64,000 nt of DNA from Ignavibacteriae bacterium HGW-Ignavibacteriae-4 (GTDB lineage Bacteria > Bacteroidota > Ignavibacteria > Kapaibacteriales > UBA2268). The position numbers and the translations under genes were made by a program. Shown here one piece after another: positions 2,290 through 2,433 of this stretch. The notes under the pieces are model-generated. The model ran no database searches. It was given only the letters and a program-made list of their open reading frames with translations, and was not told the DNA's origin. Position 1 is the first letter of the stretch, and the number at the start of each line of letters is the position of its first letter. Where the stretch lies: NCBI GenBank assembly GCA_002839765.1, contig PGYR01000014.1, positions 1 through 64,000 on the forward strand, in the 5' to 3' direction.

Positions 2290-2308
2290 TACGCAACCTT
2301 TATGCGTA
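2290..2308. promoter_or_regulatory. Candidate WYL operator O1
   Basis: Perfect inverted repeat TACGCA, 7-base spacer, TGCGTA. It lies about 50 bases upstream of the start of the WYL regulator gene. A second element with the same half-sites and the same spacer length occurs at 2415. Assignment to the WYL protein is inferred from position and repetition. Confidence 0.6.
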
Positions 2309-2414
2309 TTTAAATAAAATTTCAATTAAACTAACAATTTTATACTTTCTCTATACACCTTTTGAATATACAACTTATAGACTTTCTGAATAATATTTTC
2401 ATTGTATTAATTAT

Positions 2415-2433
2415 TACGTATCATAGATGCGTA
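2415..2433. promoter_or_regulatory. Candidate WYL operator O2
   Basis: Inverted repeat TACGTA, 7-base spacer, TGCGTA, identical in layout to O1 with one changed base in a half-site. It ends 9 bases before the -7 element at 2443, so it covers the position where a -33 element would lie. No good -33 TTTG is visible there. That placement suits an activator, or a repressor that blocks polymerase. Confidence 0.6.

What the first reader, a model, noticed from the sequence alone, without database searches (positions are those of the whole stretch)
2290..2433. Paired inverted repeats of identical design around the WYL promoter region
TACGCA-N7-TGCGTA (2290-2308) and TACGTA-N7-TGCGTA (2415-2433) share half-sites and spacer length, with centres about 125 bases apart. 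One is close to the WYL gene, the other abuts the -7 element at 2443 where the -33 element should be. This points to a single dimeric regulator acting on both promoters, possibly by looping.
Basis: partly seen in the sequence, partly recalled or inferred. Interest (0 to 1): 0.75.

Follow-up and report, generated by a model that had tools for sequence, protein, structure and literature searches.

The report
WYL operators controlling an RNA-repair-type regulon
The two matching palindromes are almost certainly docking sites of the neighbouring WYL-family regulator, which across many Bacteroidota appears to switch on RNA-repair genes and tRNA-like RNAs; one site sits where it would activate a tRNA-like RNA and scaffold-protein operon, the other where the regulator could control its own gene.

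Summary
The palindromes are real, at the stated coordinates, and the only exact matches in the 3.36-Mb genome. They belong to a conserved operator, T(A/G)CGCA-N7-TGCG(T/C)A, tied to one orthologous group of WYL regulators. Of 395 Bacteroidota genomes, 43 of 44 with the regulator carry the operator, against 110 of 351 without; within one genus it is 16/16 against 0/7. In 954 kb around WYL loci there are 101 operators and no reversed-pattern control. In 84 of 101 the -7 promoter element lies at one of two adjacent distances, with the operator covering the -33 position. The genes behind them are RNA-repair parts: RtcB, TROVE/Ro60, Rnl ligase, Hen1/Pnkp, RlaP, and Band_7 proteins preceded by a tRNA-like, YrlA-related RNA supported by compensatory changes.

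In the window, IR2 (2415-2433) fits a DriD-like activator site for a tRNA-like RNA + Band_7 operon. IR1 (2290-2308), 51 bp before the WYL start, is probably autoregulatory. Apparently new: the operator, its regulon and the WYL-RNA repair link. Binding, sign of regulation and signal are inferred, not shown.

The parts
1174..2238 (-). WYL-domain transcriptional regulator (354 aa), proposed binder of both repeats
   Evidence: Pfam WYL E=1.4e-12 above cut-off, WCX just below cut-off; orthologs in 44 of 395 phylum genomes at E<1e-100; profile matches DriD and PafBC chains in the PDB
2290..2308 (.). Operator IR1 (WYL-proximal), 51 bp upstream of the WYL start; proposed autoregulatory site
   Evidence: Exact palindrome; an operator at about 51 bp also in G041 (52) and L105 (51)
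2266..2273 (-). Tentative weak -7 element (TTAAATTG) of the WYL promoter, 20 bp from the TTG inside IR1
   Evidence: Read by eye; weak
2415..2433 (.). Operator IR2, covering the -33 position of the tRNA-like RNA/Band_7 promoter; proposed activator site
   Evidence: the only 0-mismatch match to operator + 10 bases + AnnTTTG in the genome
2443..2450 (+). -7 promoter element TAATTTTG, starting at +10 from the operator end, the conserved spacing
2457..3057 (+). Transcribed non-coding leader (about 600 nt, start inferred) carrying tRNA-like RNA modules
   Evidence: No ORF of 60 aa or more on this strand before the Band_7 gene; 460-1100 nt leaders before Band_7 genes in relatives
2540..2560 (+). Conserved 5' hairpin motif (AGTGATTCTGTATATCACCAT)
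   Evidence: Same motif in L054, L116, L126 and, read by eye, in G041
2626..2693 (+). Permuted tRNA-like core: T-arm, acceptor-type hairpin, D-arm; YrlA-related
   Evidence: Rfam YrlA E=3e-5, 33.2 bits, below gathering score 69; 12 of 19 pairs with changes on both sides, 96.9% of cells paired; model R1 78.9 bits
2698..2790 (+). Second tRNA-like module: T-arm, acceptor hairpin, D-like and anticodon-like arms, degenerate T-arm
   Evidence: Rfam tRNA 22.6 bits, sub-threshold; R1 21.6 bits
2773..2796 (+). Conserved ACCACTT..TAAAAA..GGT hairpin
3058..4155 (+). Band_7/SPFH (slipin-like) protein, 365 aa
   Evidence: Pfam Band_7 E=1.4e-30; Band_7 genes behind operator + leader RNA in G041, L054, L105, L115, L116, L117, L126
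4187..4226 (+). Intrinsic-terminator-like hairpin with T run after the Band_7 gene, likely operon end
   Evidence: Read from the sequence

Best explanation
The two repeats are operators for a dimer of the adjacent WYL regulator. At IR2 the dimer sits on the -33 position of a promoter that has a -7 element but no usable -33 element, and activates it by helping RNA polymerase bind, as the WYL activator DriD does at the -35 position. The product is a tRNA-like, YrlA-related RNA followed by a Band_7/SPFH scaffold protein, a stripped-down RNA-repair-type module. IR1 lies at the WYL promoter and most likely lets the protein control its own gene, probably as a repressor. The WYL domain would sense a product of RNA damage, such as tRNA fragments or another nucleic-acid ligand, and switch binding or activity. 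Shown by computation: the operator, its link to this WYL group, the fixed promoter spacing, the regulon content and the folded RNA. Inferred: direct binding, activation at IR2, autorepression at IR1, and the signal.
For: Only two exact sites in the genome, both beside this gene. Operator presence follows the WYL ortholog: 43/44 against 110/351 genomes, Fisher p about 9e-19, and 16/16 against 0/7 inside one genus. In flavobacterial genomes of 4-6 Mb most sites lie near the WYL gene. 101 operators against 0 controls in 954 kb; TTTG of the -7 element at two adjacent offsets in 84/101, about 4 expected. In the promoter direction any TTG inside the operator arm would be only 13-14 bp from the -7 element, too close for a normal -33. 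Targets are RtcB, TROVE, Rnl1-type ligase, Hen1/Pnkp, RlaP and Band_7. The window-type pair (about 175 and 51 bp from the WYL start) recurs in G041 and in L105 from another family. tRNA-like RNA with compensatory changes; in 25 WYL loci the best RNA hit lies downstream of an operator on the same strand. A Band_7 + RNA locus without the WYL gene (G381) has no exact operator. DriD and SiwR precedents: PMC12340889, PMC10693628.
Against: No binding or expression data. The sign of regulation rests on promoter geometry alone. IR1 has no strong -7 element at a conserved distance. The own genome has no RtcB, TROVE or Rnl1-type ligase, so RNA repair in this organism is by analogy. Many WYL genes in flavobacteria have no operator within 260 bp upstream, so autoregulation is not general. 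Genomes are phylogenetically related, and loci were fetched because they lie near WYL, although the genome-wide test does not share that bias. Counts were transcribed by hand.
Confidence: 0.78

Rival explanations
1. The WYL protein is a BrxR-like repressor: it covers the -33/-7 region of both promoters, and damage or phage signals release it.
For: Operators overlap promoters; BrxR-type WYL proteins repress from inverted repeats (PMC9122601). The divergent HD-like gene in flavobacteria has a full TAnnTTTG at +16 with a TTTG inside the operator at normal spacing, which fits repression there.
Against: Most target promoters have a weak -7 (often not TAnnTTTG) and no -33 element, and the spacing is fixed to within one base, as in activator promoters.
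Confidence: 0.15
2. The two sites act together by DNA looping between two WYL dimers.
For: Two sites 122-125 bp apart in three lineages (window, G041, L105), close to 12 helical turns in the window.
Against: Many relatives have one operator between WYL and its target; the spacing phase differs (125, 123, 122, 112 bp).
Confidence: 0.1
3. The repeats are bound by another regulator, or are RNA or mobile-element features unrelated to WYL.
For: No binding data exist.
Against: Near-perfect co-occurrence with the WYL ortholog and clustering around its gene; IR2 lies upstream of the -7 element so it is not in that transcript; no scattering in the genome.
Confidence: 0.04

Closest known systems
DriD (Caulobacter WYL activator, ssDNA-sensing)
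   Same: WYL regulator; 20-bp pseudo-palindrome over the -35 position at fixed distance from a weak -10; poor -35 element (PMC12340889); PDB profile hit 8tp8 E=1.7e-5
   Different: Targets here are RNA-repair genes and tRNA-like RNAs; Bacteroidota -33/-7 promoters; different operator sequence; ligand unknown; sequence match only over the C-terminal part
SiwR (mycobacterial WYL activator)
   Same: 19-bp imperfect palindrome upstream of the -10 (PMC10693628)
   Different: DinB-type targets; site placed between -35 and -10
BrxR-type WYL repressors
   Same: Dimeric WYL protein on inverted repeats beside its own gene (PMC9122601)
   Different: 11-bp arms with 5-bp spacer; repression of phage-defence genes
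RtcR-controlled rsr-yrlBA-rtcBA RNA repair operon
   Same: RtcB, Ro60/TROVE and Y-like RNA under one damage-responsive activator (PMC7790460)
   Different: RtcR is a CARF sigma-54 activator; here a WYL regulator with -7/-33 promoters; the window's own genome lacks RtcB and TROVE
Band-7 plus tRNA-like RNA modules of Burroughs and Aravind 2016 (from memory; paper not held)
   Same: SPFH/Band-7 gene with a novel tRNA-like RNA in RNA-repair contexts
   Different: I recall no WYL operator or regulon described there, but could not check

Membership tests
WYL-domain transcription factor | WYL domain above curated cut-off | tested here: met
   47.9 bits against 21.8
[quoted passage not shown]
   Three N-terminal helices in a model of low overall confidence (pLDDT 52; 66-84 in that part); no Pfam HTH hit
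DriD-like WYL activator | Palindromic site over the -35/-33 position at fixed distance from the -10/-7, poor -35 | tested here: met
   84/101 operators locked at two adjacent offsets
DriD-like WYL activator | ssDNA ligand and transcription activation | not testable with these tools
   Needs biochemistry
YrlA (RF02553) | Rfam gathering score | tested here: not met
   33.2 bits against 69
YrlA-related tRNA-like RNA (not filed as YrlA) | Permuted T-arm, acceptor hairpin, D-arm fold with compensatory changes | tested here: met
Band_7/SPFH protein | Pfam Band_7 above cut-off | tested here: met
   107.1 bits against 23.6
Rtc-type RNA repair operon | RtcB ligase and TROVE/Ro60 present | tested here: not met
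   None in the own genome; both present behind operators in relatives, e.g. G118 and L112

The most novel reading that the evidence does not exclude
A WYL regulator is the Bacteroidota counterpart of RtcR: a damage-sensing activator, sensing RNA fragments through its WYL domain, that drives a modular regulon of ligases, end-healing enzymes, scaffolds and tRNA-like RNAs. In this organism it is reduced to a tRNA-like RNA plus a Band_7 scaffold with no ligase of the families tested, implying a protective function that does not need RNA sealing.
Probability: 0.4. Interest if true: 0.8.

Novelty: new variant of a known kind. Interest (0 to 1): 0.64.

Why it matters
The best-studied control of bacterial RNA repair is RtcR. 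A defined operator and regulon for a WYL regulator across Bacteroidota would give a second, unrelated control route, would let regulon members be predicted from DNA alone, and would make the question of what signal calls for RNA repair directly testable in culturable flavobacteria. It also links Band_7/SPFH proteins and tRNA-like RNAs to a damage response.

Tried and rejected
AlphaFold2 of the WYL protein gave low confidence (pLDDT 52), so no fold search was run. Single-sequence folding of the leader was not better than shuffles (z -0.56); the covariation test was the useful one. The R1 RNA model also matches tandem ordinary tRNA genes up to 63 bits (G011, G031), so its presence in all 34 genomes is not informative; only higher scores, or context, were used. 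Scanning the own genome for operator plus spacing gave a 0-mismatch hit only at IR2, and the total with up to 3 mismatches equals the control, so no further regulon members can be claimed here. The WYL-side -7 element could not be fixed. Reading IR1 as a second activated promoter failed: no -7 at +10/+11 in either direction. The Burroughs and Aravind paper was not available. A first search for the Rnl1 ligase had no positive control and was repeated with genomes known to carry it.

Full report
1. Observation. Both repeats are in the sequence at the stated coordinates. They are the only exact TACGYA-N7-TGCGTA matches in the 3.36-Mb genome, with no match to the reversed control. Composition alone predicts about 0.6 sites per genome and about 5e-5 for a neighbour within 150 bp of a given site.

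2. Surroundings. To the left and divergent is a 354-aa WYL protein (1174-2238, minus). To the right, after about 600 non-coding bases, is a Band_7/SPFH protein (3058-4155, plus). Between them lie a YrlA match at 2627-2692 (E=3e-5 but below the family's gathering score) and a weak tRNA match at 2729-2784. ARAGORN sees no tRNA there. The genome has no RtcB, TROVE or Rnl1-type ligase (for the ligase the same search rings in G041, G150 and G151, so it works).

3. The operator follows the regulator. WYL orthologs from relatives and flavobacteria carry the same palindrome, generalised to T(A/G)CGCA-N7-TGCG(T/C)A, often with AC...GT flanks. In 40 genomes searched, most sites in the flavobacterial WYL genomes lie on the WYL contig near the gene. 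In 395 phylum genomes, 44 have a strong ortholog (E<1e-100) and 43 of these have the operator, against 110 of the other 351; inside genus g123 it is 16/16 against 0/7 (counts transcribed by hand).

4. Promoter geometry. I fetched about 20 kb around 40 more WYL genes. In 954 kb over 52 loci there are 101 operators and no control match. In 84 of them the -7 element starts exactly 10 or 11 bases after the operator on at least one side; about 4 would be expected. The only other clear peak, +16, belongs mainly to a divergent HD-like gene in flavobacteria. The operator therefore sits on the -33 position. A TTG in the operator arm would be 13-14 bp from the -7, too short for a normal -33/-7 pair. This is the geometry of DriD, whose palindrome overlaps the -35 at a fixed distance from the -10 with poor -35 elements (PMC12340889); SiwR is similar (PMC10693628). 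I therefore prefer activation to repression.

5. Regulon. Downstream of locked operators are RtcB, TROVE/Ro60, T4 Rnl1-type ligase, Hen1 with a Pnkp ligase-domain protein, RlaP, Band_7 proteins, and a RING_SCO0854-related protein behind non-coding RNA. In G041, of the same family as the window's genome, the Band_7 gene is followed directly by an Rnl1-type ligase. These are recognised RNA-repair components, e.g. the Pnkp1-Rnl-Hen1 complex (PMC4411300) and rsr-yrlBA-rtcBA (PMC7790460).

6. The RNA. Leaders before Band_7 genes in the window and six other lineages share a T-arm, acceptor-type hairpin and D-arm in permuted order. On the alignment of these seven cores, 96.9% of cells pair, 12 of 19 pairs change on both sides, no shuffle reaches this, and sliding the partners destroys it. 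A covariance model built from them was run on the WYL loci. In 25 loci whose best hit reaches 23.8 bits, the hit has an operator upstream on the same strand: 88-430 bases away in the direct cases, about 1.6-2.9 kb away in the others, the room a gene such as TROVE takes. The model also detects tandem tRNAs up to 63 bits, so lower scores need context. In G381 the RNA and a Band_7 gene occur without a WYL ortholog and without an exact operator.

7. The pair. Two operators at about 175 and 51 bp from the WYL start occur in the window, G001, G041 and L105, and at 176 and 64 bp in L124. In many other lineages a single operator lies 16-57 bp from the WYL start and serves the divergent gene; in a number of flavobacteria no operator lies within 260 bp of the WYL gene. 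So the pair is best read as one operator per divergent promoter. IR1 probably mediates autoregulation; a TTG inside IR1 lies 20 bp from a weak -7-like sequence, which would fit repression, but this is weak. Looping is possible but unnecessary.

8. Limits. No experiment was run. Structure prediction was poor. The signal is inferred from known nucleic-acid-sensing WYL proteins. The papers held lack the key 2016 review of RNA-repair systems, so an earlier mention of WYL genes in such loci cannot be excluded; full-text searches found no paper that joins WYL with these RNA-repair parts as a regulon.

Noticed in passing
window 201-1157 (-): MBL-fold, lipoprotein-like protein resembling PqqB, just downstream of the WYL gene; role in this locus unknown.
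   Followed up: partly
L054 4228-4998 (-); L160 2816-3632 (+): Clusters of tRNA genes beside Band_7/tRNA-like RNA loci, some of them odd enough that no anticodon is assigned; they may replace damaged tRNAs.
   Followed up: partly
L049 6674-6791, L050 6527-6643, L052 1304-1421 (-): tRNA-like RNAs with a long insert around the anticodon arm, behind operators; in L049 and L050 they precede a ~745-aa protein whose L050 copy is RING_SCO0854-related.
   Followed up: partly
L049 6931, L050 6873, L126 5053 and similar: One operator shared by divergent promoters: one side locked at +11, the other, for an HD-like protein of about 204 aa, with a full TAnnTTTG at +16; perhaps opposite regulation from one site.
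   Followed up: partly
L050 6785/6873, L126 5053/5141, L129 13194/13283, L132 9430/9517, L137 7296/7384, L138 12345/12434: Tandem operator-promoter units 87-89 bp apart, in the same direction, before the non-coding RNAs in flavobacteria.
   Followed up: no
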